From: Scilla litardierei
Lineage: Eukaryota > Streptophyta > Magnoliopsida > Asparagales > Asparagaceae
Assembly (NCBI GenBank): GCA_030789695.1
Contig: CM061135.1
Span: 107,950,301-108,014,300 of the forward strand
Direction: 5' to 3'
DNA length: 64,000 bases
Shown: one piece after another, positions 17,761 to 57,250 of the stretch
Numbering within the stretch: the first letter of the stretch is position 1
Layout of the letters: every line of letters begins with the position of its first letter
The notes under the pieces: model-generated
Told to the model about the DNA's origin: nothing
Databases searched by the model: none
What the model saw: only the letters and a program-made list of their open reading frames with translations
Position numbers and translations under genes: made by a program

Positions 17761-18140
17761 ACTCGGCCGAGTGACAAAAGTCGCTCGGCCGAGTGAAAAC
17801 CCTGTCATTTTCCAGTAAGTCGTGGGCTTCAGGGGTCTTCAGTTCGGGGGCGGCTCGGCCGAGTGAGTTGTCGTCACTCGGCCGATGGCTTCACTGCACT
17901 CGGGCGGACGCGGTTTACCACTCGGCCGAGTGGGTCTTCTGAAGCTCAGGTGGCCGAAAAACAGTAACTTCGATCTTTTTGAGGGCCTTCGTCTGGGCGC
18001 CACTCGGGCGGACGTGGTATCGTCACTCGGCCGATGTGGTCTCCGTCGCTCGGCCGAGTACACATGGAAATCGTGTCTGAACGGGTCGGCCGAGCAGTGT
18101 CTCGTTGGTCGGCCGAGTGGCTCCTCCACTCGGCCGAGTG
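17761..18140 (-). repeat. CTCGGCCGAG palindrome cluster (A, left LTR)
   Basis: Six exact copies of the 10-base palindrome occur at 17762, 17784, 17854, 17921, 18049 and 18129, several as the longer CACTCGGCCGAGTG. At least five imperfect copies lie between them. In transcript direction the cluster lies immediately upstream of the TATTTAAG box. Confidence 0.95.
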
Positions 18141-18435
18141 GGACACAAAAAATGCCCAATCTGATTGTTTTGGCCTCCTCGTCGCTCCTGCGACATCCAT
18201 TCTTCTTCCGCTCCTCTCCAACAGTAAAATATCCCTCGGGGAGGTCGTCGGTGGCCGTCTAGATTATGCGCATCTCGAGATCACTCCTAATCGCGCCAAA
18301 TCTCCTGAAATGCGACAAAAACAACAAATCGTGAAAAGCATCGCAATATCGTCGATATATCGTGAAAAACATGAGTTGGGCGATCAAAATGGCATGCAAA
18401 CATGCGGGAAAAGGGTGTAAAATAAGGAGTGATCA

Positions 18436-20407
18436 AAATCCCCCAAGCTTGCCTCTTACTCGTCCTCGAGGAAGATAAGTAAAAGGCGAACCCGGTGGAT
18501 TCGGAAAATGAAAACGGCGAAAAACGAAAAAAATGAAAAACGAAGAAGAATGAAAACCAAACGAAAATAAAGAAAGAAAGAAAGAAGAGGTAGGATGCTA
18601 GATCATTTTCTCAGGACGTGGGTTTCACTTACTCTTATAGCATGCACCGAATGAGAAATACATGTCAAAGAATCTTATTTTGATATCATAGTATAATAGT
18701 GCAAATAGAAATAGAAAACCCACGAACAACGGTATAATCATGAAAAACGGAATGATTTTAAAATTAACATCGCCTGAATCATCTAAAGCGGTATACAAAT
18801 CTCAGATCACACACTTTTCAATTGAACGCTTTCTATCTGGAGTATAAGAGTATCACATCATAGAATAGAGAGAATAGAAAAGTATGGATTTCATGAAATG
18901 AATGCTAGGCTTAGATTTCTGGATTTCGTAAAGCTAGAAACAATCTCACCGAGTATAGAATATTACTTAGCCTAGGTTGTCGTGCAATGTCAAGTAGTCG
19001 CTCTCTCACACATCAATGGATCTCCTCCCCCAAGCTCGTCTATAAGCGTGGTGGCACAAAAATATTTACATCCCCATTTTTATATAGCTCCAAAGGCAAA
19101 GAAGAGAAAGAAGAAAGAAAGTAAGCGAGATGGGATCTTTTATTGAGGATTTTTCCTCTATTTCTTCTCTCTCTTTTTTTTTTCTCTTTTTTTTGCAATA
19201 AGCAATATATATACAATGATCCCAACTCAGAGAGAGGTAATGATATACAAGAATGTTTTTCTCTCTTTTATTCTTCTCTCCTTTTTTTTTAGAATAAGAA
19301 ACTTGGAGCTAGGAATTAATAATGGGGGAAATGCCATAAAAATAGAATCACTAAGGGGGGGGGGGGTTCACCAATGATTTTAAAAGTAGAGAAATGATGT
19401 TCAAGATTTGTGGAGAAAGAAATAAATGTAACTCTCAGTTCACTCTATAAGACATGCACGACAACTTCAGCAGGGTAATCTAATCTACTCAGTTTCGATC
19501 ACAAAAAAGCTAACTAATCCAGATATATCATAGCTAACATCATTCAATCATCCTGAAGTGAAGTGTACAATTCATGCATATAGAAGTGATATAGGAAAAG
19601 AAATCAGTACTCCAGATATAGGCATTCAATGCGTGAATCTTGGTGTGTTTTCTGTGATAGCATACATATGAACATTCAGGCTCAGCTAATAATAAAACTT
19701 CATCCATTTTCATGTGGAAAAAGTGTGGGTTACTATTTCTAAATGCAAAGCAAGTCATAGCATATGATATCAGAAATAAAACCTAAGACATGACAAATGT
19801 AGCATGCATATAGAATAAGCTAACTCCACGTAGACATCATCACAGAAAATTCATCTCTAGCATGAGATGAAAAAAGGAAAGAAGTAAAGATAAAAGGAAA
19901 ATAGAACTATGCAATGCGGCACACAGGAAAATAAGAAAAACGTGATGCATGGCAAGATAAAGGAAAAATAATGAAAAATGAGTGCAAAAGTGAAAAACGG
20001 TGTGAAAAACTGAAAATAAAGGTGGCTAAACGAAAAAGAAAGTGAGGACTCACTCCCCCAAGCTAAACGGCACAGTGTCCTCAATGTGCAGAGTGTGGCA
20101 CACAGAGAGACAAGGAATGAGAGGTGCAAGTGAGGATGCATGCATGATGGAAAGAAAAAAGATAATAAAAGGAAAAATAAAGAAGTGAAAATATGATGCG
20201 GATATGATGCATGCACAGATATGAGTGATACGAGTATATATGTGTCACCGAAAAGCTCTCCCTCTCTCCCAAAAAAGATATATAGAGATACGGCAAAATG
20301 AGAAACGCAAAATAAGTGAGGGGAGGGGGGGGGTGGACAAAAAGACATCAGGACCCAGCAGAAACGGGCAGCACAACGGCAAAAGGAATCGATGGCATCA
20401 AGGGTGC
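18436..20407 (-). other. Long non-coding 3' region of element A
   Basis: About 2 kb between the ORF2 stop and the 3' LTR, AT-rich and without coding motifs. On the minus strand it holds repeated AGCTTGGGGGA purine-rich tracts, one adjoining the LTR (18436-18450) and others near 19030 and 20060. The matching region in element B is 39397-41337. Confidence 0.75.
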
Positions 20408-23166: not shown

Positions 23167-23167
23167 A

Positions 23168-23510
23168 TAGAAAGTTACGACTCGACCGAGTGACGTGGTC
23201 ACTCGGCCGAGCGAGGCAATAGAAATTTTCTCCCCGATATCGCTTCGGCCGAGTGGCTTTGCCAGCCTCGGTCGAGTGGAGTAAGTCCATTCGGCCGAGT
23301 GACTCAAGCTACTCGGCATGACTCGCCCTAGGAGGGTATCCATTTTACTCGGCCGAGTGAATATATATACTCGGCCGAGTAGCAGTTATAATGAAATGAG
23401 GAAAATAGACAGAGAGTTGGGTACAGCAGACTTCCCTCGTTCGTGAGCGGCTCGGCCGGACGAACTTCTGGACTCGGCCGAGTGACTAGTATACTCGGCC
23501 GAGTGAGCCT
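23168..23510 (-). repeat. Internal CTCGGCCGAG palindrome cluster (element A)
   Basis: Multiple exact and near copies of the LTR palindrome, located in the spacer between gag-protease and ORF2 and immediately upstream of the TATATAAG box. Confidence 0.9.
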
Positions 23511-26765: not shown

Positions 26766-28586
26766 TGGTCGCGCCCCGGATACACGTCCCGAGGCGACGG
26801 TTGTAGTTTTACCGCAAGCGCACGGTATGGTGGGGAGCGGGTATCGAACACAGGGAGGACGGATGACCGTGCTTGCTCCTGATCAACCTGGCTATTTAGG
26901 GACAGAGATAATTGCCTTGGGCGATCCTGTCACAATCGTCAGACAAATTTGCGAAATATCAAATCAAATAAAGAACGTCTAGGGAAAGGGGAATCCCCAC
27001 TACTCACCGTATTTCATAAATGTGGTTCGCCGGTATCGAAATCGCTAGAATGAGAATTTGGATGAACTAGTTGCAACTAAATGTGGAACCAAGCTCACGC
27101 TCTCGCGCTGTTGCCGGTCTATAGCTATCCTAGGTTTGGGTCCAATCTCTTGCAAACCCTAGCCTAGGGAAGCTAGCATTAGGATCAACATCATCGTCCA
27201 ATTGCGCACCGAGCCCAATCTCTTGCAAACTCGGTCCACAATCTAGATTAGGATAGTTCCTACCCGTCCAATCTCTTGCAAACGGGTATCGGCACGGAAT
27301 TGCAACCGGAGGTCCTAGTATCGGTCCAATCTCTTGCAAACCGGTACTTCGAAAATCCGACTCCAACCCAATTCGGATTTCTAGGGCTTCCTATCAAATT
27401 GGGATCCAATCTCTTGCAAATCCCAATTGATATGAATACCTAGCTATCCGTAGTAATTCGATCCCAATCTAATCCCTAATAACAATCCTGGCTCAATTTC
27501 TACCAATTCAACACAAATAGGAAATAGGGCTTGTAGGGTTCATCCCCACGCCCCGAGACGTGGAGACTACTCACAAATCATAGCAATAGCACAAAAATAA
27601 TCAATGAAATAGGCAATGGAATTCATCTCAACAATGATATAAACAATAAAAATAGAGTTTTTGGGGAAGAGAAATGCAAACCAATGTAGATCTTCAATTA
27701 ATCCAACAAAAAATCCAAGTTTTTCTCTTCTCCAATCACAATTAATAAAGCTAAAAAGTAGACTCAAAAAGCTGCAAAAAATCTGAGAGATGGCTCCCAA
27801 AACTAGGGTAAAAACAGAGCTTAAATAGCCCCAAAAATCGTCTAAAAATCCTGACCAAAACGCCCCTGCACAGCCTGTTTTCCGCAAATTTCGCTACAGG
27901 CAGCGCATCGCACTCGGCCGAGTGACAAAAGTCGCTCGGCCGAGTGAAAACCCTGTCATTTTCCAGTAAGTCGTGGGCTTCAGGGGTCTTCAGTTCGGGG
28001 GCGGCTCGGCCGAGTGAGTTGTCGTCACTCGGTCGATGGCTTCACTGCACTCGGGCGGACGCGGTTTACCACTCGGCCGAGTGGGTCTTCTGAAGCTCAG
28101 GTGGCCGAAAAACAGTAACTTCGATCTTTTTGAGGGCCTTAGTCTGGGCGCCACTCGGGCGGACGTGGTATCGTCACTCGGCCGATGTGGTCTCCGTCGC
28201 TCGGCCGAGTACACATGGAAATCGTGTCTGAACGGGTCGGCCGAGCAGTGTCTCGCTGGTCGGCCGAGTGGCTCCTCCACTCGGCCGAGTGGGACACAAA
28301 AAATGCCCAATCTGATTGTTTTGGCCTCCTCGTCGCTCCTGCGACATCCATTCTTCTTCCGCTCCTCTCCAACAGTAAAATATCCCTCGGGGAGGTCGTC
28401 GGTGGCCGTCTAGATTATGCGCATCTCGAGATCACTCCTAATCGCGCCAAATCTCCTGAAATGCGACAAAAACAACAAATCGTGAAAAGCATCGCAATAT
28501 CGTCGATATATCGTGAAAAACATGATTTGGGCGATCAAAATGGCATGCAAACATGCCGGAAAAGGGTGTAAAATAAGGAGTGATCA
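26766..28586 (-). repeat. 5' LTR of element A
   Basis: 1,821 bp, about ten differences from 16615-18435. TATA-like TATTTAAG on the minus strand is at 27820-27827. The palindrome cluster spans about 27911-28291 and the hairpin array about 27138-27427. Confidence 0.95.
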
Positions 28587-30384: not shown

Positions 30385-30895
30385 GGGCACCGACCGACTA
30401 GATGACGATCCAGTCGGTCGGTAATCCTTCTTGGACCGACTAGTTGGCTTTCTAAATTTCTCAGGAGTTACTGTTTATCGTTAGTCGGTCTAAGAACGTT
30501 GGTTGACTGACTAGGTTGCAAACTAGTCGGTCGGCAATGCTTCTTTAACCGACTAACACATCATCTAAATTTTAGTATCAGTACTGTTCATTCTTAGTCG
30601 GTCTAAGTTCATCTTTCGACCGACTAGTTGTTAAACTAGTCGGTTAAGTTTTGTACTCAGACCGACTAATTCTTGGTTCTAATGTACAGTCGAGTTACTG
30701 TTTACTCTTAGTCGGTCTAAGAACGTTCATTGACCGACTAGATGTTAAACTAGTCGGTCAGTATTTGTTCATGGACCGACTAATTCTAAAATCCTATTTT
30801 CGTTCAGAAGTTACTGTTTACACTTAGTCGGTCTGTGTTGGTCGACCGACCGACTAGTTGCCAAACTAGTCGGTCAGTGGTTGCTCTTTGACCGA
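30385..30895 (+). repeat. TAGTCGGT/ACCGACTA inverted-pair array (Tekay LTR)
   Basis: Seventeen copies of the 8-mer TAGTCGGT or its complement ACCGACTA occur in about 510 bp, alternating in orientation and lying within four to five loose ~115-bp units. They occur as convergent and divergent pairs able to form stems. A TATA-like box follows about 50 bases downstream. The right LTR repeats the array at about 49690-50205. Confidence 0.92.
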
Positions 30896-30942
30896 CTAAC
30901 CTGTGTTAAAACCCTAATTTCTGGGCAGCCGCCAGCCCACCC

Positions 30943-30951
30943 TATTTAAAC
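30943..30951 (+). promoter_or_regulatory. TATA-like box of the Tekay LTR
   Basis: TATTTAAAC just after the inverted-pair array; the copy in the right LTR is at about 50245. The position between U3 repeats and a pyrimidine-rich leader suits a core promoter. Inferred only. Confidence 0.5.
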
Positions 30952-31550
30952 CCATCCCAAACGTTTCTTCTTCCTCCCTCACGACCCAAAACCCTAAAAT
31001 CTCCCCCATTGAGCCCCCATCTTCCTCCAAGCTTCATTCCTTCATTCCAAGCCCTAGATTCATCATCTAAACCCTCCATCCACTCATTCCACCTCTCTTT
31101 TTCCCCAAATCTCCATCAAATCCCCAAAATCCCCCAAAAACCCTAGTTCTCCAAACTTCTCCAATCTTTTCCAGATCTGATCCTAGGGTTCTCCGGAGTG
31201 TTTCTTCCGCTTCCTCTCGGTAAGAAATCGATCCCTTGGTGTTTTTATAACTGATCACTCCTTATTTTACACACTTTTTCCACATGTTTGCATGCCATTT
31301 AGATCGCCCAAATCATGTTTTTCACGATATATCGACGATATTGCGATGCTTTTCACGATTTGTTATTTTTGTCGCATTTCAGGTGATTTGGCGCGATTTG
31401 GAGTGATCTCGAGATGCGCTTACTCTAGACGGTCACCAACGACCTCCCCGAGGGGTATTTTGCTGTTGGAGAGGAGCGGAAGAAGAACGGATGTCGCAGG
31501 AGCGACGAGGAGGCCAAAATAAGCATATTGGGCATTTTTTGTGTCCCACT

Positions 31551-31931
31551 CAGCCGAGTGGAGGAGCCACTCGGCCGACCAGCGAGACACTGCTCGGCCG
31601 ACCAGAACAGACACGAGTTATGTGTGCACTCGGCCGAGCACCGAAGACCACATCGGCCGAGTGACGACATCACGTCCGCCCGAGTGGCGCCCAGACGAAG
31701 CCCTCCCAAAACATCCAAGTTACTGTTTTTCGGCTGCCTGAACTTCAGAAGACCCACTCGGCCGAGTGGTTAATCCCGTCCGCCCGAGTACTATGAAGCC
31801 ATCGGCCGAGTGACGACAACTCACTCGGCCGAGCCGCCCCCGGAGTAGAGACCCCTGAAAGCCCCGAATTACTGGAAAATTGCAGGGTTTTCACTCGGCC
31901 GAGCGACTTTTGTCACTCGGCCGAGTGCGAT
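31551..31931 (+). repeat. CTCGGCCGAG palindrome cluster (B, 5' LTR)
   Basis: Five exact and several degenerate copies, ending about 80 bases before the TATA-like box. Repeated in the 3' LTR at about 41636-42015. Confidence 0.93.
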
Positions 31932-32010
31932 GCGCTGCCTGTAGCGAAAACTGCGGAAAACAGGCTGTGCAGGGGTATTTTGGTCACAGTTTTTGGACGA
32001 TTTTGAGGGC

Positions 32011-32018
32011 TATTTAAG
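32011..32018 (+). promoter_or_regulatory. TATA-like box of element B LTR
   Basis: TATTTAAG within GGGCTATTTAAGCCC, itself an inverted repeat. It follows the palindrome cluster and precedes the hairpin array. The 3' LTR copy is at 42096-42103. Function inferred. Confidence 0.5.
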
Positions 32019-32410
32019 CCCTGTTTTTACCCTAGTTTTAGAGCCTCTCTCTTAGATTTTTGCAGCTTTTTAGATTAGTTTTTTTAGCTTTATTCTTGTG
32101 ATTGGAAAGGAGACAAAGATTGGAATTTTGTTGGATTCAATTGAAGAACTCCATTGGTTTGCATCTCTTTTCCTTAAAAATTCTTTTTTTATTGCTTATC
32201 TCAATATTGTGATGAATTCTATTGCTTATTTCAACGATTATTTTTGTGATCTTGCTATGAATTGTGAGTAGTCTCCACGTCTTGGGGCGTGGGGATGAAC
32301 CCTACAAGCCCATTTTCATATTTGTGATGAATTAGTAGAAATCTTGCTAGAATTGTTATTAGGGATTAGATTGGGATCAATTTACTACGGATGGCTAGGT
32401 ATTCATATCA

Positions 32411-32705
32411 ATTGGGATTTGCAAGAGATTGGATCCCAATTTGATAGGAAACCCTAGAAATCCGAGTTGGGTTGGAGTCGGATTTTCGAAGTATCGGTTT
32501 GCAAGAGATTGGACCGATACTAAGACTTCCGGTTGCAATTCCATGCCGATACTCGTTTGCAAGAGATTGGACGGGTAGGAACTATCCCAATCTAGGTCGT
32601 GGACCGAGTTTGCAAGAGATTGGGCTCGGTGCGCGATTGGACGATGATGTTGATCCTAATGCTAGCTTTCCTAGGCTAGGGTTTGCAAGAGATTGGACCC
32701 AAACC
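32411..32705 (+). repeat. Constant-loop, variable-stem hairpin array (B, 5' LTR)
   Basis: Five exact TTGCAAGAGATTGG loops at 32419-32432, 32499-32512, 32557-32570, 32610-32623 and 32683-32696. Their stems are ATTGGGAT/ATCCCAAT (8 bp), AGTATCGGT/ACCGATACT (9 bp), ACTCGT/ACGGGT (6 bp, one wobble), ACCGAGT/GCTCGGT (7 bp, one wobble) and GGGT/ACCC (4 bp with further pairing outside). They should lie in the RNA leader. The 3' LTR repeats them at about 42496-42785, with one stem base changed. Confidence 0.9.
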
Positions 32706-33072
32706 TAGGATAGCTATAGACCGGCAACAGCGCGAGAGCGTGAGCTTGGTTCTACATTCAGTTGTAACTAGTTCATCCAAATCCTCATTCAAGCAATTTT
32801 GATACCGATAAACCGCATTTATGAAATACGGTGAGTAGCGGGGATTCTCCATTCCCTAGACGTTCTTTATTTGATTTGAAATTTCCGCATTTTTGTCTGA
32901 CGATTGTGACAGGATCGCCAAAGGCAAATTTCTCTCTTAAATAGCCAGGTTGATTTGAACAAGCACGGTCATTCGTCCTCCCTGTGTTCGATATCCCGCT
33001 TGCCGCTATACCGTGCGCTTGCGGTAAAACTACAACCGTTCTTTGGGTCACATCCCGGAGCGACCAAGTTTT

Positions 33073-33090: not shown

Positions 33091-33223
33091 AGCGATTGCG
33101 TTTGATTCTTTCTCACCCTAGCTATTTCTTTTTTTTATTTATTATCATTATTTTTATTTCTTATTTCTTACCTAACCCTTCCACGGAACTAATCATTTCT
33201 TTGAAACTCTGTTTCCCCTGTGC

Positions 33224-35925
33224 ATGTACACGAGATCTACGGCGGACCCTGAAGCTATATTATTTGATCCCGAGATCGAATGTACCGCACGGAGACTTAG
33301 AGCGGAAAGGAGACAAAATCCGGAAGGGCGGTCTATGACCAACCCGGAAACTCCTGAACAATTGGCGGCAAGGATGGCGAGGCTAATTTCTATTCGAGAT
33401 AGGCTTCGGCCTAAGACCTCTTCTACTACCTCATCCATTGCCATGCCGGGGTTGGCGGCTGACACGAGCTTCGAGCTAAAGACTGGACTAGTGGTTCTGA
33501 TGCAACAGGATCCATTTCATGGGAATGCCCATGAAAATCCCCACTACCACATCCAATCGTTCTTGTCAAAGTGCGCCACATTCCAGATGCCGGGGGTCTC
33601 CATCGATGCCATCAGACTGCGTCTCTTCCCTTTCACGCTAAAGGACAAAGCACTATACCGGTTGAGGACGCAAGCTGAGGGTGTCTTCACCACTTGGGAC
33701 GAGTTGGCGAGTGCATTTATTGATAAGTTCTATCCGCCATCCAAGACGGTGAAAATCCGGAGCGCTCTCATGTCCTTCAAGCAAGGACCACAGGAGACGC
33801 TCTATGAAGCTTGGGAGCGTTTTAAGGATTTGCAGCATCAATGCCCGCATCACAGCATAGAAGATTGGGAGCTAGTTCATAGCTTCTACAACGGTCTCCA
33901 ACCGGGGACCAAACAAATTATTGATGCCGCGGAGAATGGTGCTATCTTGTCAAAGACTCCCGAGGAAGCTACGGCCCTAATTGAGGAGATGGCCTCAAAT
34001 AATCAACAATGGGGCGATGAGCGAGGACACTCTACGTCCTCCTTGAAGCCGACTAGTATCTATGAGGCGAAGGCCGTAGCGGAGCTTACGAGCAAATTTG
34101 ATTCTCTCCACAAGGTAGTGGAGAGATTGGAGAAGTTTATCACGGAGCCCCAAGGAGCCCCATCCACCTCCGCACCGACTAACCAAATGTGTGATTGGCA
34201 AGACCAATCTCAAGCCATGTACGTGGGAGGAGAGCAAGGAGAAGGATCCTTGGAGCAAGTACAATATGTTGGGGGAACCAAGGATATTGGGCCAATCCGG
34301 CCGCAAGAAATCATCCCGGATTCTCCTACGCCAACAATGAAGGAGCTTTGAACCCGCCACAACCGCCACCTCAACAAGCCCGACCACCACTACCACCCCA
34401 ACAACAAAACTATCCACCGAGGGGGCCTACTCAACAAAATTTTCAACCGAAGCAACAAGTTCCACCATATAGGCCGCCCGGATACAACCAAGGGTGGAGG
34501 AATCAAAATCAAAACCCTCCTCAAGCTCAACAACGATCCGACTTTGAAACTAGAGTGGAGGCGTTCATGGTCGAGCAAAATAAGGTAAATGCTACCTTGA
34601 AGGCGGGGCAAGACTCCCTTAATACAATTGTGGCTCAAATATCGGAGCAATTAGCGTTGCTAAATCGGAACACTCAACGATTACCGGCGCAACCCGAGCA
34701 AAACCCACAGAGCAACACCGGCCACATCAATTCCGTAGTTGCCGTTACTACTAGAGGCGGAAAGGATACCACCCCCGCCATGATCCCTACCGAGGAGCCC
34801 GTGGAGGAAAGTTCGGAGCCGATTGAGCCGGTGGTTGAAGTTGATAAGGAGAATGAGCCACGAGAAAAGGAGAAATCTAGAGCGGAACAATTGATTGAGG
34901 AAAGGCGCTTCATGCCACCGGTCCCATTTCCCCAAAGACTAGCGAGAGCGAAAATGGAGAAAAGGCTAGCGAAGTTCCTCGAGTATCTTAAAGGAGTTAG
35001 CCTTAACATTCCCTTCCTCGACGCCATCATGGAAATCCACACATATGCTAAATTCTTAAAGGATTTGATTTCGGGGAGAAAGAGGAAGGAGAAGATTATG
35101 CTAGCCGAGGAGGGCTCTTGGTTTACCAAGAGAGAAAAGGAGCCGGCCAAATTTAAAGATCCGGGGAGTTTTCGGATTCCTTGCACCTTGGGCGGCGTCC
35201 CTCTTCAAAAGGCGTTGGTTGATCTAGGGGCTAGTGTGAGCCTCATGCCTCTCTCCATGTTCTTAAGGCTAAACATCGGGACCAAGTTGAAACCCACCGA
35301 CATGCGCATTCAATTAGCCGATGGACGGATAACAAGGCCGGTGGGGATCGCCGAAGACATACCGCTACAAGTCCCGGGTGGAATATGCTTACCATGTGAC
35401 TTCGTGATCATGGACGTTAAGGAGGAGGGAGATACTTCATTGATACTTGGACGCCCATTCCTCGCCACCGCCGGAGTGATTGTCGACGTGCGCGAAGGTA
35501 CCCTAACTCTAAATGTCGGCAACATCGAGGTGGAGCTCCACATTCCTAAGGCTATGAAGCACATGCCTTACCACGAGGAACTTGACTACATGGACCTCCT
35601 TGATGAGGTGATAAAGGAGGCGATCCCCCACTCAATTGGCGCTCTTTTTGATGAAGATTTAGAGGAAGGCCCAGATTTAGGCCAAGATGAGAAGATAGAC
35701 GATTCCCCCGACTTCTCCGCTGAAGATGATGAAGGCGACACTGATGTCGCAAGGATTCGAGAGCTCTGCAAGCTCTCAAAATTGGAGTCTCCGAAGAAAG
35801 CTCCTCCGGTACGGAAATCGGCATCACCATTGAAGCCGTTGACCGGAGCAAAGGCTAGCTTGGGGGAGCCTCCCCCCAACACTATTCGAGATGGGATACC
35901 ACCGCGGGAGAACACGACGTCGTAA
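33224..35925 (+). pseudogene. Gag-protease of element B, one frameshift
   Basis: ATG at 33224. The gag core reads on from MYTRSTADPEA with LKTGLVVLMQQDPFHG and FIDKFYPPSKT. By comparison with A, one base is missing near 34270-34275, so the first frame ends at 34351 and the remainder continues in the frame 34195-35925. That part is Q/P-rich, then carries a possible coiled segment (FMVEQNKVNATLKAG) and the protease with LVDLGASVSLMPLSMF and ILGRPFLATAGVIVDV. An acidic tail ends at 35925. No reverse transcriptase follows. The two stops of element A are CAA here. Confidence 0.88.
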
Positions 35926-36663: not shown

Positions 36664-36671
36664 TATATAAG
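36664..36671 (+). promoter_or_regulatory. TATA-like box upstream of ORF2 (element B)
   Basis: TATATAAG, 545 bases upstream of the ORF2 ATG and adjacent to the internal palindrome cluster. It repeats the LTR order of palindromes then TATA. A separate ORF2 transcript is an inference. Confidence 0.5.
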
Positions 36672-37215: not shown

Positions 37216-39396
37216 ATGCCGCCCCGGACACGGCCGCGGTCGAAGAGAGCTTCCGCCAAGCGGAAGCGGTTGGATGATGCCGGCCCCTCCCACGAGTTGG
37301 AGGACTCTCCTCCACTGTCCCCCACACACCCCGCACACCCAGCACAGCCTGCAGGCCCCGCACACCCCGCACAACCTGCAGTGCACCCACAGCCCGCACA
37401 GCCTCTCCCTGCCGCTGCACAGCCACCACCACCGGCTCCACTGGTCGGGCCGCTCGGGATTACGTTCCGAGACGACGCACACCGCGCCGTCTTTGACCGT
37501 ATCTCCCAGCGCTCGATCGTACCCTCCAGGTTTGCACACCTCGCTGACCTAGGACGACTGGGGGTACTAGAGGGGATGCTCACGTTGTACGACAACGTGG
37601 GCTGGCGAGATTTTTTACAGGTGTCGGCGGATACGTTTACCCGACCGACACTTGAGGTTCTGAGTTCGATCGCCCAGACCGACGAGGGATGCTCATTCCG
37701 GTTCATGGATCGAGAGTGCCAGGCCACTCTCGATATGATGAGAGCATTTTTCTCGTGGCCCGCTGTCCCCGGTGCCGATCGCGGTTACGGCCCCACCCAT
37801 ATCCCCCCACCTTCCTTTGACGCCGGTGCCTTCTGGGCCCGGATTACGGGTCTCCACACTGCCTTTGACCCTAGTAGGGCCAAGGCCTCGGCCATTGTCC
37901 ACCCCTGCCTACGTATTGCTCAGCGCCTTATGGCGACGACCTTTTTGGCCAGATATGAGCCGGGCACGATGTCTACGCCAGAGCTCTACATGCTCTACGC
38001 GATGACACGTCCCAGAGCTCTATCTAGGGATGGCGATGAGCTGGTCCCCGCCGTCGTGATTGATGTCGCGGCTTGGTTTTTGGACCGCATCATTGTATCG
38101 GTGGGCGCTCGCTCACCGATATGCTGCGGCGGCCTGATCACCTTGCTTGCTCTTATGACCGGCGAGGACTTCCCCGACAACTTGCGACGCGTCCCGGGCC
38201 CCACTTCTCTGTCGATAGACGTTATGGCCCGGATGAAGATGCTTCGTCCGCACGGTGAGCGTCACTGGGTCTGGTTGCACGGCCCTTACGGTGCCGATTA
38301 CATGATTCTCCCGAGCCCTGCTCGGACTCTGATTGCACCGGCCCACGTTGATTGGCTCCCTACGATGGATGTTCTCATCCCCGCTGCCTACGTGCTCGAG
38401 GCCGAGGAGGCCGAGCAGGCCCACGCTGCCCCTGTAGACCCTGTTGCTCACCCTGCCGAGCCTGCTGCCGAGCCTGTTGACCCAGTGGCCCCTCAGCCCA
38501 TACCTGATGTTTCCGCTGCTCCTGACACTTCTGTCCCCACTTCTGTCAGTGTCACGAGTACCTTAGCTGAGCCCACTTCCACCACCACTTCCGAGGCTGT
38601 CACCACCACTCCCACCACCACCACTGGCCCTCTGTCCGTTGAGCCTCTTTGCTCCGCACTCCCCGAGCGCCCGTCGACCTTTGTTGCTAGTGGAGAGCCC
38701 TCGTTTGCCGCGGTCGTGGAGACCATGGCTAGCATGATCTCCGCTGGGGTTGCGCCTTTTGGTCCACACACTTCCACCCCAGCGGTAGTTACCTCTGTCT
38801 CCACCCCTGCTGTATTTTCCGAGAGCGTCGTGGCGTCTGTCCACACTTCTGTGCCACCGACCTCTCCGGCCACCTCGCTGCCATTTTTGCACTCTTCTTT
38901 CGTTGCTGCTGCCTCCACTTCCCACCAGCCGGTGCCCCGGCCTCACACTGAGGCCAGGCCCACATTCGCAGGCGCAACACCTTTTGTTCCCTTCCCCGCT
39001 GAGCCAGTCACATACGCGGCCAGAGTTCGCCAGCCACGCCCTGCACTGCCCCGCCCGGTGCGTCCCTCTGCACCACCTCCCCCTGACACTGTACTTCAGA
39101 GCATTCGTGCTCTAGAGGGGGCGGTGAGTGGCCTCCGAGGTGACCTTAGGACCCTGTCCTCCACCGTCTCTGCGATGGCTGGCCGCTTCGAGCTGATCCC
39201 CCAGATCCATTACTGCCTCACCCAGGTTCTGGAGCGTCTCCCGCGCGTACCCCCACCCACCCTGCAGGTTCCCGCCCACACTTCCACACACACCCGACCT
39301 GCTACCACACCCACACCCACACCCGCTCAGCGACCTGTCCAGCCACCACCACCACCTCTGCCTCAGGACGGAGACAGTGCAGCACCACCTTCCTAG
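37216..39396 (+). CDS. ORF2 protein of element B, intact (726 aa, unknown function)
   Basis: Uninterrupted from ATG 37216 to TAG. The N-terminus is basic (MPPRTRPRSKRASAKRKR, a plausible nuclear localisation signal) followed by a proline/histidine-rich stretch. A conserved region of about 300 residues contains GITFRDDAHRAVF, GWRDFLQVSADTF, FMDRECQATLDMMRAFFSWP and AWFLDRIIVSVGARSP. The overall pattern resembles the plant 'putative plant transposon protein' or Athila ORF1/env-position families (PF20167 or PF03078 from memory). The C-terminal half is low-complexity P/S/T/A with a short predicted coiled segment near TVLQSIRALEGAVSGLRGDL. No signal peptide, membrane span or catalytic motif is apparent, so I do not call it an envelope. 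Its integrity in a copy with broken gag may mean recent activity or selection. Confidence 0.8.
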   Translation: MPPRTRPRSKRASAKRKRLDDAGPSHELEDSPPLSPTHPAHPAQPAGPAHPAQPAVHPQPAQPLPAAAQPPPPAPLVGPLGITFRDDAHRAVFDRISQRSIVPSRFAHLADLGRLGVLEGMLTLYDNVGWRDFLQVSADTFTRPTLEVLSSIAQTDEGCSFRFMDRECQATLDMMRAFFSWPAVPGADRGYGPTHIPPPSFDAGAFWARITGLHTAFDPSRAKASAIVHPCLRIAQRLMATTFLARYEPGTMSTPELYMLYAMTRPRALSRDGDELVPAVVIDVAAWFLDRIIVSVGARSPICCGGLITLLALMTGEDFPDNLRRVPGPTSLSIDVMARMKMLRPHGERHWVWLHGPYGADYMILPSPARTLIAPAHVDWLPTMDVLIPAAYVLEAEEAEQAHAAPVDPVAHPAEPAAEPVDPVAPQPIPDVSAAPDTSVPTSVSVTSTLAEPTSTTTSEAVTTTPTTTTGPLSVEPLCSALPERPSTFVASGEPSFAAVVETMASMISAGVAPFGPHTSTPAVVTSVSTPAVFSESVVASVHTSVPPTSPATSLPFLHSSFVAAASTSHQPVPRPHTEARPTFAGATPFVPFPAEPVTYAARVRQPRPALPRPVRPSAPPPPDTVLQSIRALEGAVSGLRGDLRTLSSTVSAMAGRFELIPQIHYCLTQVLERLPRVPPPTLQVPAHTSTHTRPATTPTPTPAQRPVQPPPPPLPQDGDSAAPPS

Positions 39397-41337: not shown

Positions 41338-43151
41338 TGATCACTCCTTATTTTACACACTTTTTCCGCATGTTTGCATGCCATTTAGATCGCCCAAATC
41401 ATGTTTTTCACGATATATCGATGATATTGCGATGCTTTTCACGATTTGTTGTTTTTGTCGCATTTCAGGTGATTTGGCGCGATTTGGAGTGATCTCGAGA
41501 TGCGCTTACTCTAGACGGTCACCAACGACCTCCCCGAGGGGTATTTTGCTGTTGGAGAGGAGCAGAAGAAGAACGGACGTCGCAGGAGCGACGAGGAGGC
41601 CAAAATAAGCAGATTGGGCATTTTTTGTGTCCCACTCGGCCGAGTGGAGGAGCCACTCGGCCGACCAGTGAGACACTGCTCGGCCGACCAGAACAGACAC
41701 GAGTTATGTGTGCACTCGGCCGAGCACCGAAGACCACATCGGCCGAGTGACGACATCACGTCCGCCCGAGTGGCGCCCAGACGAAGCCCTCCCAAAACAT
41801 CCAAGTTACTGTTTTTCGGCTGCCTGAACTTCAGAAGACCCACTCGGCCGAGTGGTTAATCCCGTCCGCCCGAGTACTATGAAGCCATCGGCCGAGTGAC
41901 GACAACTCACTCGGCCGAGCCGCCCCGGAGTAGAGAACCCTGAAAGCCCCGACTTACTGGAAAATTGCAGGGTTTTCACTCGGCCGAGCGACTTTTGTCA
42001 CTCGGCCGAGTGCGATGCGCTGCCTGTAGCGAAAACTGCGGAAAACAGGCTGTGCAGGGGTATTTTGGTCACAGTTTTTGGACGATTTTGAGGGCTATTT
42101 AAGCCCTGTTTTTACCCTAGTTTTAGAGCCTCTCTCTTAGATTTTTGCAGCTTTTTAGATTAGTTTTTTTAGCTTTATTCTTGTGATTGGAAAGGAGACA
42201 AAGATTGGAATTTTGTTGGATTCAATTGAAGAACTCCATTGGTTTGTATCTCTTTTCCTTAAAAATTCTATTTTTATTGCTTATCTCAATATTGCGATGA
42301 ATTCTATTGCTTATTTCAACGATTATTTTTGTGATCTTGCTATGATTTGTGAGTAGTCTCCACGTCTTGGGGCATGGGGATGAACCCTACAAGCCCATTT
42401 TCATATTTGTGATGAATTAGTAGAAATCTTGCTAGAATTGTTATTAGGGATTAGATTGGGATCAATTTACTACGGATGGCTAGGTATTCATATCAATTGG
42501 GATTTGCAAGAGATTGGATCCCAATTTGATAGGAAACCCTAGAAATCCGAGTTGGGTTGGAGTCGGATTTTCGAAGTATCGGTTTGCAAGAGATTGGACC
42601 GATACTAAGACTTCCGGTTGCAATTCCATGCCGATACTCATTTGCAAGAGATTGGACGGGTAGGAACTATCCCAATCTAGGTCGTGGACCGAGTTTGCAA
42701 GAGATTGGGCTCGGTGCGCGATTGGACGATGATGTTGATCCTAATGCTAGCTTTCCTAGGCTAGGGTTTGCAAGAGATTGGACCCAAACCTAGGATAGCT
42801 ATAGACCGACAACAGCGCGAGAGCGTGAGCTTGGTTCTACATTCAGTTGCAACTAGTTCATCCAAATCCTCATTCAAGCAATTTTGATACCGATAAACCG
42901 CATTTATGAAATACGGTGAGTAGCGGGGATTCTCCATTCCCTAGACGTTCTTTATTTGATTTGATATTTCTGCATTTTTGTCTGACGATTGTGACAGGAT
43001 CGCCAAAGGCAAATTTCTCTCTTAAATAGCCAGGTTGATTTGAACAAGCACGGTCATTCGTCCTCCCTGTGTTCGATATCCCGCTTGCCGCTATACCGTG
43101 CGCTTGCGGTAAAACTACAACCGTTCTTTGGGTCACATCCCGGAGCGACCA
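41338..43151 (+). repeat. 3' LTR of element B
   Basis: 1,814 bp, about 21 differences from the 5' LTR, with the same palindromes, TATA-like box and hairpin array. Confidence 0.95.
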
Positions 43152-49400: not shown

Positions 49401-51967
49401 TGTAACGACTGCTTTTCATGTATCTGGATTTATTATAATATAATATATGTTTTGGTGGATTTTCTCCTCGTGTGTGGTTTTCGTCTCCGTAGCTTTCATT
49501 TTCGATCGATTCGTCGTATTTTCTCGTTTCTTCCTTAGGATTGTCGATTTCGAAGTATGTCATTCGTGACGGACTTCATAACGGTCGTATCATACTATTA
49601 GATCAAGCCTAGGAGTCTTAGAAATCGATCCCGGGGCCCCGCGCTCCGTATCGGAACTTTTGGTGCTCATTAGCCGGTATAAGAAGGGGCACCGACCGAC
49701 TAGATGACGATCCAGTCGGTCGGCAATCCTTCTTGGACCGACTAGTTGGCTTTCTAAATTTCTCAGGAGTTACTGTTTATCGTTAGTCGGTCTAAGAACG
49801 TTGGTTGACCGACTAGGTTGCAAACTAGTCGGTCGGCAATGCTTCTTTAACCGACTAACACATCATCTAAATTTTAGTATCAGTACTGTTTATTCTTAGT
49901 CGGTCTAAGTTCATCTTTCGACCGACTAGTTGTTAAACTAGTCGGTTAAGTTTTGTACTCAGACCGACTAATTCTTGGTTCTACTGTACAGTCGAGTTAC
50001 TATTTACTCTTAGTCGGTCTAAGAACGTTCATCGACTGACTAGATGTTAAACTAGTCGGTCAGTATTTGTTCATGGACCGACTAATTCTAAAATCCTATT
50101 TTCGTTCAGAAGTTACTGTTTACACTTAGTCGGTCTGCGTTGGTCGACCGACCGACTAGTTACCAAACTAGTCGGTCAGTGGTTGCTCTTTGACCGACTA
50201 ACCTGTGTTAAAACCCTAATTTCTGGGCAGCCGCCAGCCCACCCTATTTAAACCCATCCCAAACGTTTCTTCTTCCTCCCTCACGACCCAAAACCCTAAA
50301 ATCTCCCCCATTGAGCCCCCATCTTCCTCCAAGCTTCATTCCTTCATTCCAAGCCCTAGATTCATCATCTAAACCCTCCATCCACTCATTCCACCTCTCT
50401 TTTTCCCCAAATCTCCATCAAATCCCCAAAATCCCCCAAAAACCCTAGTTCTCCAAACTTCTCCAATCTTTTCCAGATCTGATCCTAGGGTTCTCCGGAG
50501 TGTTTCTTCCGCTTCCTCTCGGTAAGAAATCGATCCCTTGGTGTTTTTATAACCTATTTGTATTTTTATGAAACCCTAATAAAATTTCATGTTGTTTGAT
50601 GATTGTTTCCCGAAAACAGCGATTTTCCCCCGTAGACTAGCATCCGCGAGACGAACCTTCGTGATCGTCATCCCCGGTGCTAGGCAAGTGAAACTTGCCA
50701 CTTAGGGTTTAGGCCATGTTTTAGGCCATTTGCTTGTTGTAGGCGTAAAAGAGGCTAGGCGACGAAATGATACTCGCCTAGGCGCAAATTTGGGGAACTA
50801 GCTTGACAACGAAGCTAGTTCCGACATATAGCATGTTGCACAATTACCATGTCATGTTTACTTTCCATTAACGGTACGCGAATTAATTGTCATGTCATTG
50901 CATTCTTTAAGTGCTTCTGTGATTGCGTAGCTTTGCTACGAATGCTTGTGTTCCTGGCTCGTGTTCCAGAAGCGGGCCATGTGTTGGTTGATAGCCAATG
51001 CCCGAATTGATTGTTTCCGGCTAGGTGCACCCCAACGCCAAATGTTTAAGAATGCGAGCTCATGTGCGGGGCAACCCCGGCTCACTTGCTGAGCTCATGT
51101 GCGGGGACCCTGGCTCCGTTACGTGTGGGTATTGGGGGTAAGAGTTAAGTGGCCAATCAACTGGGAGTCTGCCCGATCAGCAACTGCAGTGGTAAGGCGT
51201 AAACTCTGGGTTTTGGGGTAGTTGTTAAGCGGCCAATCAGCGAATGTGAAACCATTCAGCTGTAAGGCGTAAACATCTACAAACAACGTGAATAGTGAAT
51301 TGATTGAGATTGATAGTAGCTTGGCTACTCTTGTCTTGTCCCGATGATTGTTCTCTTGTGCAAATTGTCTTGCCATGTCTTGATTGTGCACTCATGTTAT
51401 AACTGTCATGTCATGCATACTATAACTGCTAGGTTGCTAGTTACCTTACTTTCAGTTTCCTTGCCCAAGTCTTTTAGACTTGCTGACATGTGCCCCTTTA
51501 CTCTTTTGGGTGACACATGTTAGATCCTGAGCCTGAGTACCTTGTTGAGGACGAGGTGTTTGCTGACGCCGAGCCCGAGCTTGTGTTTGACGGGGAGTAC
51601 GTTGACACTGGGGACCAGTCCTAGTGTCTTCGTTGTGTTTTACTTTTGTTTAGACAGTTGTTTTGTTATCGGTGCGTAGCACCTATACTTTGTTATGTCG
51701 TTGCTTTTGTTGGCCTTGTTCTGGGCCTTTAGACTCTTTCTTTTAGCCTGGTGGCTTTCTGGATGTTGGACTTATTTTCATGTTGGACAATTTATGAGAT
51801 GTGAGATTTTATTTCAGTCTCTCCTTGTGTTATTATTGTTGTTCCTTTGTGGTTACAGGGATCTGCTTATGTTTTATTGACGCTTATCGGGTTTGGGGCT
51901 TCACAGCTCCACTCTCGTGCGGACCTCTTCACGTCTCGCCTCCATTTTAGGGAAGCGGGTCGTGACA
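49401..51967 (+). repeat. 3' LTR of the Tekay element
   Basis: 2,567 bp, TGTAACGACT...CGTGACA, preceded by the purine tract TTGGGGAGGA (49391-49400). It serves as the uninterrupted reference for the split 5' LTR, showing the empty ATAAC site at about 50549-50553. Confidence 0.94.
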
Positions 51968-52387: not shown

Positions 52388-54237
52388 TGTTGGATCCTAT
52401 GGATGGCAAACAACACTAAGGGGGGTTGAATAGTGTTGTGGAAAAAAAATTCACAAACGAACACCACAAAAATAACTTCCCTTCCAATGTTGCCTAAGGA
52501 ACCAAGTATAGTGATCTACGCTTGGTCCTTAATCAACACGATTGATCTTTAAATATAGATAAGATAATATATAAACAATAAAGATCAAAGGAGTAAAGAT
52601 AATAGAATAGATCTCACAGCGGAATATAAACTTGCAATAATGAATTTAGTTAGCAAGAGTAAATTAACGAATGATTGCAAATGACATATGATAAAAATGA
52701 ACTTGTTAGGGTAAAGTAAATGTCAATCGCAAACACAAAGATTTTTATCCTGGTTCTCTACAACCTGGATACGTCCAGTCCCCAAAACTCTTATCGGGCT
52801 TTAATCCACTATCATCGGTAAATAGTACAAACCACCTTTCGCCAAGAGGATTTACAACCACCTTGCCTACACCAAGGATTTACAACCACCTTACCTACAC
52901 CAAGGATTTTCACTTGCCTCACAACCCGAGGACTTTTCCTTGCCTCACAATCCGAGGACTTTCAATACCCTTATCACCAAGGGACTACAAGTAAAATCAA
53001 ATCTAATACACCACAATGAATTAGTGGAGATTGGTTTTTACACCCAATAATTCTATAGCCAATATTAAATTTGCAATAGTGCTTAACGTGGCTAAAAGAA
53101 TTTAAATCGTTTGTAGATCACACAAAGAATATGAGTTTATTCAATGTGATCTAGAATCTAGATGTGTTCTTAGATCACACAAAGAATATGAAATTATTCG
53201 ATGTGCTCTAGAATCTAGATGTTTCAAAAATCCTTTGAGAATATGAAAAATCAAAGAGAAGGATTTTGAAAACCAATTTGCAATAGCCAAAAAATAATAA
53301 TGATCTTAAAAAGAATTATAAAAGAATATAAGCAATAAGATCATAAATTGAAAAACCGTTTTGGCTATGAAGAACTTTGAGAGCAATGAGAACAATGAGA
53401 TCTTTTGAGAGAATAAGAATTTTGCTCAAGAATAAAATTAGTGAGGAAAAAGATCTCAAGGCTTCTCTATTTATAGAGCCAAAGGAGAATTCAAAATGAT
53501 TCAAATCATGTTTGACTTTAGCCCAAAAATTAAACAATGAATAAATGAGAGAGTGAATCAAGGAATTCTGGTCGTACAGCTGGTAGTCGACTCCCTACCT
53601 TTGGTAGTCGACTCCCAGAGTGTTTCAGAGAAAATCTGCTACAACTGGTAGTCGACTCCCTAACTTTGGTAGCCGACTACAAGAGCATCTTTTCTGGTAG
53701 AAGACAGAAATCAGTGTAGTGAACTACTGGGTGTTTGTAGTTGACTACAAGTTGAAACTTAGCTTCTATGAAAAGTATGCTCTCAAATAAGTTTTGAAAC
53801 AAGTTTAAAAACATTTTAGATAATCATTTTGTGTGTGTGCATATTCTTTCTTGGCTTTGACATAATCCTAAGAAAATGAAAAACAACTCACACACTAGAC
53901 TCTATGAAGAACTTGAAGCTATGGTTGAGCTTGAGCTAGTTGCATAGGCTTCACTTGAGTTTGAGCTCCTCTTTAGCTTGAGCTTGAGCACATTTTTTGA
54001 GCTTCATTTTCGAGCTCCTCTTCTGCTAAAGCTTTAGAATGTAGACATGAAATGTGAGCTCAATCCATCTTCATCGTCAATGTGTGTAGTTATAGTTCTT
54101 CTTCTCGGAGTATGTTTCGAGCTTCAATTAGCTTATTGCACAACCTACACACTTAAGTAGTATGATTAGTAAAGTAACAACATTTGGTGTGATCATCATC
54201 AAAACAAACCACTTAGGGTGGGACTAGATTCCCATCA
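52388..54237 (-). mobile_element. Solo LTR of a SIRE-type Ty1/copia element
   Basis: 1,850 bp, starts TG and ends CA, with the 5-bp duplication GAATT at 52383-52387 and 54238-54242. On the minus strand it starts TGATGGGAATC and ends with the ...TTCAACCCCCCTTAGTGTTG...ATCCAACA pattern typical of SIRE/Maximus LTRs. Minus-strand TATAAATAG is at 53467-53475. A cluster of GTAGTCGACT words (53580-53745) lies just upstream of it. No interior or partner LTR, so it arose by LTR-LTR recombination. Confidence 0.85.
53580..53745 (-). repeat. GTAGTCGACT palindrome cluster (solo LTR)
   Basis: Five copies of GGTAGTCGACTCCC or close variants (GTAGCCGACTAC, GTAGTTGACTAC) around the palindrome AGTCGACT, about 105 bases upstream of the minus-strand TATAAATAG. 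Confidence 0.88.
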
Positions 54238-55890: not shown

Positions 55891-55895
55891 TCGAT

Positions 55896-57250
55896 GCAAA
55901 AGATATTTATAAGTTAACCATTAGCAATATGGATCGTATGCAGCAGGTGTTGAACACAGGAAGGCAGTGGTATGAGTATCAGCTAATCTGTATCTAAATA
56001 GCTACGCGAATGTAAAAAAGAGAGGGATAATTACATTAAAATACAAAAATAAAGAAAGGTGCCATGTGCCAAGCGTCACCGCTGGTGTATATGGAGCAGG
56101 TGGGTCGACCTAGCTTCTCGAGCCAATGATTTATCGCCCTAGATGATAGTCGAAGCTCAACCCTCGCCATCTCAATGTCTAGCCAAGAGAAGACTCGAAA
56201 AATAGGTTGGATCCCTTACCGTAGCCCCGATGGTCAGTCAAACGCTACGGTAGTGGCGATTCTAGTGAGTATGTCTGACGGTTGGTCGGTGCCTAGCACT
56301 AGATAGTCAACCCTCCTGGGTATGAGGCAGGATGAATTGAGTACATCCAAACCTATTATTAAGACTGAAACCCTAATTGGAAAGATATTTGGCATGGTCC
56401 ACCCACCTGAACAATCTACTCCAGGGTTAAGCTAAGCCCTATGCACAAAAAGCTAATCTATTACATCACAACAAGAGATAAACAACAAATAAGGAAAAAC
56501 ATCATAAAGGGCAAGAGGAATGAAATTAAAGATAATACATATGAAATTAAACTAAAAGCAAATAGAAATTCATTACATCACAAGTAAAATAAAGATTCTT
56601 AGAATTACAAGGAGAAACAGCCCCCAACGGGGGAGAAACCCCTAAAAATCACGGAAGAAGAATCTCCATCTCCCAATTTGCTTACCAGAATTTATACTAC
56701 AGGAGAAAATATAAGGTCGCACAGTCGTGCCGAAATCAGCATGGCCGTGCAGCAGCTAGGAAACCTAGGGTCATTTAGCGCTATTGTTTCGAGCACGACC
56801 ATGCTCCTTGCCAGCAAGGCCATGTTGGTCCTTCTTTTAAGTCCAAATCGGCTGCAGGTAGCACGGGTGTGGCACGTCCGTGCTAAACGCCCATGCTGCC
56901 AGTAAGCTCGCTACCTCGCTGTAGGGAATTAAGCACGGCTGTGCAAAACGTTAGTACGGCAGTGCCAATGCTGCTGTAGCTTCTCCCTTTGGCCTTATGA
57001 TATGACATGGCCGTGCATTTGCACGCACGGCCGTGCAGTATGCTCATCAGCCCGTATCTTCCCTCCTTTAGCTCAGATTCATGATAATCTTTGTCTTTAT
57101 CTCTCTCAAGCTCCACAAATCGCAGATTAACATTATTTGAGCATGGATTCCCTGAAATGTACAAAATGCATACCCAAAGCATCAAACTGATTAAAATGTG
57201 TAAAAGCGGAGAAAAATATCGAGAATAACATGGAATAAATACAGAAAATG
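55896..57250 (-). mobile_element. Decayed Athila-like LTR
   Basis: It adjoins a degenerate primer site and resembles the element A LTR end: TTGAACACAGGAAGG..TCTAAATAG against TCGAACACAGGGAGG..CTATTTAGG. It holds its own palindrome cluster (56717-57035) and a minus-strand TATAAA at 56691-56696. The outer boundary is approximate; no target duplication identified. Confidence 0.55.
56717..57035 (-). repeat. GCACGGCCGTGC palindrome cluster
   Basis: About nine exact or near copies, for example GCACGGCCGTGC near 57025, GCATGGCCGTGC near 56740 and GCACGGCTGTGC near 56930. It lies directly upstream, in transcript direction, of the TATAAA box. Confidence 0.83.

What the first reader, a model, noticed from the sequence alone, without database searches (positions are those of the whole stretch)
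17761..57035. Family-specific palindrome clusters just upstream of TATA boxes in unrelated retroelements
Each family has its own palindromic word in a cluster next to a TATA-like box: CTCGGCCGAG (A and B LTRs), TAGTCGGT/ACCGACTA (Tekay LTR), GTAGTCGACT (SIRE-type solo LTR), GCACGGCCGTGC (old Athila-like LTR), CACGGTCGTGTG (28890-29400). Distances to the box are about 10-105 bases and the order is the same on either strand. Exact 10-base palindromes repeated 5-7 times in 350 bp cannot be chance. They look like arrays of dimeric transcription-factor sites or silencing-associated hairpins acquired independently by Ty1 and Ty3 elements.
Basis: partly seen in the sequence, partly recalled or inferred. 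Interest (0 to 1): 0.87.

Follow-up and report, generated by a model that had tools for sequence, protein, structure and literature searches.

The report
Phase-locked palindrome arrays before retrotransposon promoters
In this plant genome several families of jumping genes each carry, just in front of a TATA-like promoter box, repeated copies of their own short palindromic or inverted DNA word, set in pairs about two turns of the DNA helix apart; the arrays are likely docking sites for a multi-part DNA-binding protein that would control the element, which matters because such arrays had been reported as special to one other group of elements.

Summary
The clusters are real, far above chance, and lie upstream of TATA-like boxes. 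Half-sites of the chromovirus ('Tekay') alternate at 23 bp (51 of 51) and 19 bp (27; otherwise 43-60 bp between quartets). Genome-wide, 481,387 of 483,096 such pairs have exactly a 14-bp spacer. Spacers diverge while sites hold. A and B carry a second array inside the element before an internal TATA-like box; a related gag-protease element (L016) has the same two arrays with another word in both. In one family mirror-image pairs outnumber direct pairs 48,844 to 369. Palindromic boxes before TATA and env are published for Sireviruses and called Sirevirus-specific (PMC2829016); here they occur in Ty3 elements. Best reading: platforms for a sequence-specific, probably tetrameric DNA-binding factor; RNA hairpins are less likely but not excluded. 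No binding protein or transcription start was shown. Arrays are not universal: 5 of 12 LTR pairs tested have one.

The parts
17762..18138 (-). Array of CTCGGCCGAG sites in the 3' LTR of element A
   Evidence: TATTTAA 84 bp 3' of it, about 17676-17670 on the - strand
23179..23505 (-). Internal array of the same word in element A (9 sites), shortly before TATATAA (about 23166-23160)
   Evidence: 17 bp from the hand-set end 23184
27913..28289 (-). Array in the 5' LTR of element A, 84 bp before TATTTAA
28850..29397 (-). Array of ACACGRYCGTGT-type sites (12) in a fragment between A and the chromovirus; TATATAAG at 28881-28874, with one site beyond it
   Evidence: measured 108 bp from a hand-set end at 28990; two degenerate sites lie nearer, to about 10 bp; LTR identity not verified
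30392..30898 (+). Chromovirus 5' LTR: alternating TAGTCGGTC / GACCGACTA half-sites in quartets (23, 19, 23 bp)
30943..30949 (+). TATTTAA box 43 bp 3' of the chromovirus array
31252..33067 (+). 5' LTR of element B, inserted in the chromovirus 5' LTR; tRNA-Asp-type PBS at its end (label recalled)
31547..31927 (+). Array of CTCGGCCGAG sites in B 5' LTR (10 sites)
32011..32017 (+). TATTTAA box of B 5' LTR
33176..35925 (+). gag and aspartic protease ORFs of B (no reverse transcriptase match in the four ORFs of B that were scanned)
36326..36652 (+). Internal array of B (9 sites), same word as its LTR, unrelated flanks
36664..36671 (+). TATATAAG box just 3' of the internal array
37132..39396 (+). Second ORF of B downstream of the internal array, PF03078 (ATHILA ORF-1)
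41633..42012 (+). Array in B 3' LTR
49694..50200 (+). Array in the chromovirus 3' LTR, TATTTAA 43 bp after it
53583..53748 (-). Array of GTAGTCGACTAC-type sites (6 sites in three pairs 21 bp apart); TATAAA 105 bp 3' on the - strand
   Evidence: 'SIRE' label not tested
56719..57036 (-). Array of GCACGGCCGTGC-type sites (10, nine of them degenerate); TATAAA at 56696-56691 on the - strand

Best explanation
Several retrotransposon families in this plant genome carry, just upstream of TATA-like boxes, arrays of a family-own palindromic or inverted word in pairs at fixed 19-23-bp spacing, and these arrays are likely platforms where a sequence-specific, probably tetrameric DNA-binding factor would bind on one face of the helix and regulate transcription. 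Each unit of two dyads (about 32-35 bp) would hold two dimers side by side. Several units would add up to a strong promoter-proximal element. Elements with two arrays (LTR and internal) carry the same word at both, so one factor would read both. Because no accessory gene common to the elements was found among the domains identified, the factor is inferred to be the host's, and its word specificity is inferred to differ between element families. Shown: words, positions, spacing, sequence constraint, word sharing between the two arrays. Inferred: binding, tetramer, host origin, that the internal TATA-like box is a promoter, and the direction of the effect (activation more likely than repression, since the elements keep the sites).
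For: Spacing: chromovirus half-sites facing inward are 23 bp apart in 51 of 51 nearest-neighbour cases; facing outward they are 19 bp apart in 27 and 43-60 bp in 23, the latter between quartets. Genome-wide 481,387 of 483,096 pairs with any 0-30-bp gap have exactly 14 (backwards controls 1 and 0). CACTCGGCCGAGTG pairs: 29,844 of 31,319 strand-counts with gap 0-30 have gap 6-10 (control 0). Blind scans: window 14 of 14 close pairs at 21-23 bp; in five further 10-kb stretches 12 of 12 close pairs at 19-22 bp, from 2 of the 5. Constraint: anchored only on the outer sites of quartets, inner sites are 0.96 identical and spacers 0.47-0.66 (21 stretches, partly related copies). Two arrays: B's LTR and internal arrays share words but not flanks. 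The L016 element, with gag-pro 41% identical to B's, has 7 and 7 ACCGATCGGT (one mismatch allowed) in LTR and internal array and no CTCGGCCGAG; A and B have 9-10 CTCGGCCGAG in each and no ACCGATCGGT. Its internal array ends 12 bp before TATATAA. Symmetry: mirror-image pairs of asymmetric sites 18,818 + 30,026, direct pairs 369. Against RNA: chromovirus spacers pair no better within a unit than between units (6.27 v 6.35 of 14, p = 0.59, 15 quartets); arm mismatches in the sense strand are 31 G.U and 53 A.C.
Against: No binding protein, transcript start or expression data. The mirror-image symmetry of CCGATCGG pairs is also what a hairpin would need, and A/B pairs do not show it (direct identity 0.73-0.90, inverted 0.69-0.80). 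Words were not significantly better conserved than spacers in three of eight comparisons: CCGATCGG L016 v L020 (23/168 v 35/216, p = 0.57), A/B internal (5/126 v 20/253, p = 0.19), chromovirus 5' v 3' LTR (2/180 v 7/361, p = 0.73); and there sites were picked by their match to the word, which favours them. Chromovirus spacers 1 and 3 are more complementary than composition predicts (6.3 v 3.5 of 14), though equally so between units. The places listed for one orientation class have only spacers of 8 or 10, which helical phase alone does not predict. One gap of 11 bp occurs in the 57-kb array. Copies share descent, so genome-wide counts are not independent events. Seven of 12 LTR pairs tested have no array, so it is not needed for promoter function in general.
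Confidence: 0.6

Rival explanations
1. The arrays act as RNA: paired palindromes fold into hairpins in the 3' LTR part of the transcript, feed small-RNA production and mark the element for silencing.
For: Arrays fold far better than shuffles (z -8.7 for B, -16.8 for the chromovirus). Mirror-image pairing in the CCGATCGG family. Native arms fold better than swapped arms in 5 of 7 arrays. Published maize Sirevirus palindromes are small-RNA hotspots (PMC10760457 passages; PMC5311732 passages; the 2016 primary paper is not held).
Against: Fixed spacer length with free spacer sequence is not needed by a loop. No covariation of chromovirus spacers. No G.U preference. Native arms fold worse than swapped arms in the A LTR and 57-kb arrays. 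The same word repeated in unlike units is not needed for folding.
Confidence: 0.2
2. An element-encoded protein binds the arrays (as VANC or TNPA do in DNA transposons; recalled), for instance the product of the second ORF of A/B, giving self-regulation or anti-silencing.
For: The word is specific to each element family and the internal array sits before ORF2 in B.
Against: The chromovirus has arrays without such an ORF among the domains found, and Sireviruses without env also have RM boxes (PMC2829016). ORF2 had no homologue at E <= 0.001 among the 7991 candidates scored; its only Pfam match is ATHILA ORF-1.
Confidence: 0.1
3. The arrays are dense symmetric CG/CHG sites that attract DNA methylation or methyl-DNA readers; word identity is incidental.
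For: Every word named here but TTGGTGCACCAA holds CG; Sirevirus RM boxes define CpG islands (PMC2829016 passages).
Against: TTGGTGCACCAA has no CG yet shows a 21-bp pair before a TATA-like box. Whole words, not just CG, are kept, and spacing is fixed.
Confidence: 0.06
4. Neutral tandem duplication made the arrays and nothing reads them.
For: The chromovirus array is a ~114-bp tandem repeat.
Against: Sites are kept while spacers reach 40-49% difference (window v L012a and L009); within-quartet distances do not vary though between-quartet distances do; LTR and internal arrays of B share only words.
Confidence: 0.04

Closest known systems
Sirevirus repeated motifs, RM boxes (Bousios et al. 2010, PMC2829016; section 9 read whole, other passages seen)
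   Same: Family-own palindromic words, many copies, clustered in the upper half of the LTR before a TATA box, and a second cluster before the env gene; the authors suggest regulation.
   Different: There in Ty1/copia Sireviruses and called Sirevirus-specific (compared with other Ty1/copia); here in Ty3 elements (chromodomain element, gag-pro elements). In what I read no spacing rule, half-site quartets, mirror-pair symmetry or change of word at both places is stated.
[quoted passage not shown] 2016; not held, known from PMC10760457 and PMC5311732 passages)
   Same: Palindromes in the regulatory part of the LTR.
   Different: Read there as structured small-RNA hotspots; PMC10760457 says that maize Ty3 elements generally lack an obvious peak of miRNA-like structures. 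Here the sequence evidence leans to DNA recognition.
Paired-site promoters such as HTLV/SV40 21-bp repeats and p53-type dimer-of-dimers sites (recalled, no call)
   Same: Sites about two helical turns apart beside a core promoter; two palindromes per tetramer.
   Different: No homology claimed; factor unknown here.
VANDAL/VANC and Spm/TNPA motif arrays (recalled; VANC papers seen only as a search listing)
   Same: Element-specific short words in arrays read by a cognate protein.
   Different: DNA transposons with their own protein; none identified here.

Membership tests
Sirevirus RM boxes | Repeated palindromic word private to the element family | tested here: met
   for the chromovirus the unit is an inverted half-site pair, not a palindrome
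Sirevirus RM boxes | Cluster in the LTR shortly before a TATA box | tested here: met
   8 of 8 LTR arrays with independently known strand (A, B, chromovirus, L016; two LTRs each), 15-84 bp
Sirevirus RM boxes | Second cluster before a 3' ORF (env in Sireviruses) | tested here: inconclusive
   Internal arrays of A, B and L016 exist; the ORF after it in A/B is PF03078, not shown to be env, and the 219-aa ORF in L016 has no Pfam match
Sirevirus RM boxes | CGG-CCG core | tested here: inconclusive
   Present in CTCGGCCGAG and GCACGGCCGTGC; inverted order in CCGATCGG; absent from GTAGTCGACTAC and TTGGTGCACCAA (Tnd-1 also lacks it)
Sirevirus RM boxes | At least 8 copies per element | tested here: inconclusive
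   9-12 sites in the A, B, 28.9-kb and 57-kb arrays, 19-20 half-sites in the chromovirus, 6 in the 53-kb array
Sirevirus RM boxes | Carrier is a Ty1/copia Sirevirus | tested here: not met
   Chromovirus: RT, RNase H, Tf2-1-like SH3 and chromodomain matches; A/B and L016: Retrotrans_gag and Ty3_capsid. Not tested for the 28.9-kb, 53-kb and 57-kb arrays
Sirevirus RM boxes | Small-RNA hotspot | not testable with these tools
   No small-RNA data
Tetramer-type transcription-factor platform | Fixed spacing of sites with free spacer sequence | tested here: met
   (chromovirus); spacing alone in the palindromic families
Tetramer-type transcription-factor platform | A protein that binds the unit | not testable with these tools
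   No binding data; none identified

The most novel reading that the evidence does not exclude
Plants have a diversifying family of tetrameric host DNA-binding proteins, each paralogue reading the private word of one or a few retrotransposon families at a common two-turn geometry: a plant counterpart in logic to the vertebrate KZFP-retroelement pairing, but one which the elements exploit as promoter platforms and track by changing the word in both of their promoters together.
Probability: 0.3. Interest if true: 0.88.

Novelty: new variant of a known kind. Interest (0 to 1): 0.64.

Why it matters
It extends a feature published as Sirevirus-specific to Ty3 elements in a 3.7-Gb genome (about 480,000 exact pairs of the chromovirus word) and gives it a measurable rule (two-turn pairing, quartets, mirror symmetry in one family, one word per element at both arrays). 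That turns a vague question, what switches plant LTR promoters on and how one family is recognised among many, into a direct experiment: pull down what binds a 34-bp unit and shift the spacer by half a turn.

Tried and rejected
Generality in other plants: scans of IMG/VR with two pol proteins and one word pair found no relative; no plant collection was on hand, so generality outside this genome rests on PMC2829016 alone. Folding native against swapped arms was mixed (lower energy native in B LTR, A and B internal, 28.9-kb and 53-kb arrays; higher in A LTR and 57-kb). The D6 element (LTRs 4353-5352, 12030-13029) has a tandem repeat but no pair rule. A loose array caller gave 81 stretches; I took forward those with palindromic or inverted words and did not follow the rest. 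Of the direct repeats I took eight in the sample as LTR pairs; those of L001, L009, L010, L013, L017, L024, L025, L028 and the tandem ones of L012 and L030 were left out by eye. Passages of PMC12016029 (barley enhancers), PMC6911290 (nesting), PMC11963269 (Retand) and PMC11656987 (machine learning on plant LTRs; no 'palindrom' in its text) did not bear on the arrays. LOB-domain proteins as candidate binders: the paper search gave nothing useful in its listing, so no candidate is named. The ORF2 homologue search was empty; the gag-protease search listed relatives in many plants at 30-49% identity and did not name the host.

The genome-wide spacing of GTAGTCGACTAC, ACACGGYCGTGT, GCACGGCCGTGC and symmetric AACCGATCGGTT was asked for and never answered.
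Full report
WHAT THE WINDOW HOLDS. The window is plant DNA from a 3.68-Gb assembly (G000, contig C6) with nested LTR elements. Element A (minus strand, 16614-28586) and element B (plus strand, 31252-43152) are 90% identical over their length with LTRs of about 1.8 kb. Both encode gag and an aspartic protease and, downstream, an ORF with the PF03078 domain; no reverse transcriptase match was found in their ORFs that were scanned.

THE OBSERVATION. Details that need correcting are in the observation check. Two arrays were missed: A and B each carry a second cluster of the same word inside the element, before TATATAAG in B.

THE SPACING RULE. Thresholded sites in seven arrays fall in pairs 20-23 bp apart, with longer gaps between pairs and one gap of 11. 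A word-blind scan of the window finds 14 close pairs of like dyads, all at 21-23 bp. In twenty 10-kb stretches taken at round-number positions on C1-C5 a scan that also accepts mirror-image words finds new words with the same spacing: AACCGATCGGTT types (L016, L020, L022, L027; 19-22, one pair at 40), TTGGTGCACCAA (L014; 21, and one pair at 34), ACAGTCGACTG types (L019; 19-22) and ACTCGGCCGAGT (L009; 21). Exceptions there are a 15-bp minisatellite in L025, a pair at 25 in L025 and low-complexity words in L026 (21 and 24). Five further stretches, fetched later, gave 12 close pairs, all 19-22 bp, from 2 of the 5. Genome-wide, CACTCGGCCGAGTG-CACTCGGCCGAG gives 14,924 forward and 14,920 reverse with gap 6-10 and 15,632 and 15,687 with gap 0-30, control 0. 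The pattern is nearly self-complementary, so forward and reverse counts partly show the same places.

THE CHROMOVIRUS QUARTETS. Half-sites TAGTCGGTC (>) and GACCGACTA (<), at most one mismatch, alternate. Over window and sample, nearest neighbours within 80 bp are: >< 23 bp in 51 of 51; <> 19 bp in 27 and 43-60 bp in 23; << once. The unit is thus a quartet (23, 19, 23), and the distance between quartets is free. Two >< dyads in a quartet are 42 bp apart, about four turns of the helix. Genome-wide 483,096 exact pairs have a gap of 0-30 and 481,387 of them exactly 14. Young copies inflate this count. The more telling data are that spacers differ by 40-49% between the window array and those of L012a and L009 while sites differ by 4-6% (sites picked by match), and that in stretches anchored only on outer sites the inner sites are 0.96 identical and spacers 0.47-0.66. 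Of the other comparisons, window v L012b (p = 0.04), L012a v L012b and the A/B LTRs (5/154 v 36/267, p = 0.0005) agree; A/B internal, 5' v 3' LTR and L016 v L020 show no significant difference.

TWO ARRAYS, ONE WORD. After masking the words, B's LTR and internal arrays share nothing significant (best blastn E 0.83; one 12-base match of 11, in a degenerate unmasked site, against at most 10 in 20 shuffles). In L016 an element with LTRs 613-2171 and 7742-9299 encodes a gag-protease ORF 41% identical to B's. It carries CCGATCGG arrays in both LTRs and a third after gag-protease, ending 12 bp before TATATAA. Counts with at most one mismatch: B 5' LTR 10 and internal 10 CTCGGCCGAG, A 9 and 9, all with 0 ACCGATCGGT; L016 element 7 and 7 ACCGATCGGT, 0 CTCGGCCGAG. 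Coding and remaining internal parts have 0, save one ACCGATCGGT match in L016 gag-pro; one exact CCGATCGG 8-mer lies in B's internal stretch. So related elements use different words, and each uses its word at both places. This is two element families, hence one word change.

TATA-LIKE BOXES. For 11 arrays whose direction is known independently (A three, B three, chromovirus two, L016 three) a TATA-like match lies 9-84 bp downstream; for ten others, whose direction I inferred with the box in view, 15-120 bp; chance for a random point within 110 bp is 0.104. Arrays in L009, L019, L021, L030 and L032 were not put through that call. Array ends were set by hand, and for the 28.9-kb array too far from the box.

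PROTEIN OR RNA. For a protein: fixed length with free spacer sequence; no better complementarity of chromovirus spacers within than between units (15 quartets; both above composition, 6.3 v 3.5); arm mismatches in sense orientation A.C 53, G.U 31, other 77, where RNA pairing would favour G.U. For RNA or a whole-unit symmetry: in the CCGATCGG family asymmetric sites pair in mirror image (17 distinct of 27 units: outer halves match 17 of 17, inner 15 of 17; genome-wide 48,844 mirror against 369 direct). A symmetric tetramer explains this as well as a hairpin does. The A/B and 53-kb arrays show no clear mirror preference. Folding energies are extreme but follow from the repeated inverted words. 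I put the protein reading at 0.6 and the RNA reading at 0.2.

NOT UNIVERSAL. Of one LTR from each of 12 pairs (four in the window, eight of the sample), A, B, the chromovirus, L016 and L030 have many mirrored 9-mers at 18-24 bp (12-34 against shuffle means 0.8-1.6); D6, L011, L012 (8548-9995), L015, L020, L026 and L029 have 0-2. A and B are one family, and L016 and L030 share the word.

LITERATURE. PMC2829016 (section 9 whole, passages elsewhere) describes palindromic RM boxes in 13 Sirevirus elements, before TATA and, in the nine with env, before env, and calls them Sirevirus-specific. PMC10760457 (passages) reports that maize Ty3 elements generally lack an obvious peak of miRNA-like structures, which Copia elements have in their LTRs. 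That I found no spacing rule or Ty3 case in print rests on searches of this one library (listings, and passages of the few papers named here); the 2016 Genome Research paper was not held.

Noticed in passing
30097-31251 / 43152-44571 / 49399-51967: Element B is inserted in the chromovirus 5' LTR about 300 bp after its TATA-like box, so the chromovirus 5' LTR is split while the 3' LTR is not.
   Followed up: partly
37132-39396: Second ORF of B (PF03078) had no homologue at E <= 0.001 among the 7991 candidates scored.
   Followed up: partly
5584-6552: ORF with PF04195 (Transposase_28) antisense to the RT ORF of the element with LTRs 4353-5352 and 12030-13029.
   Followed up: no
1266-1650: Repeats of 19, 23 and 68 bp with GGTCGG-type words about 22-23 bp apart; might be another phased array without palindromes.
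   Followed up: no
58901-62500: LINE-type ORFs (RVT_1 with zf-RVT, Exo_endo_phos) on the minus strand.
   Followed up: no
L014 5085-5393: Tandem copies of a long palindrome (GGCCGCACTTG...CAAGTGCGGCC) separated by GAGAGCTCTC palindromes; nearest TATA-like match 95 bp away on one side.
   Followed up: no
L030 713-1328 and 8207-9758: Tandem repeat of about 81 bp on both outer sides of an LTR element, as if the element had inserted in a satellite.
   Followed up: no
and 114 listings: In the places listed, CA-AC type CCGATCGG pairs have spacers of only 8 or 10 bp, whereas AC-CA pairs are mostly 7 or 8; the parity is unexplained.
   Followed up: no
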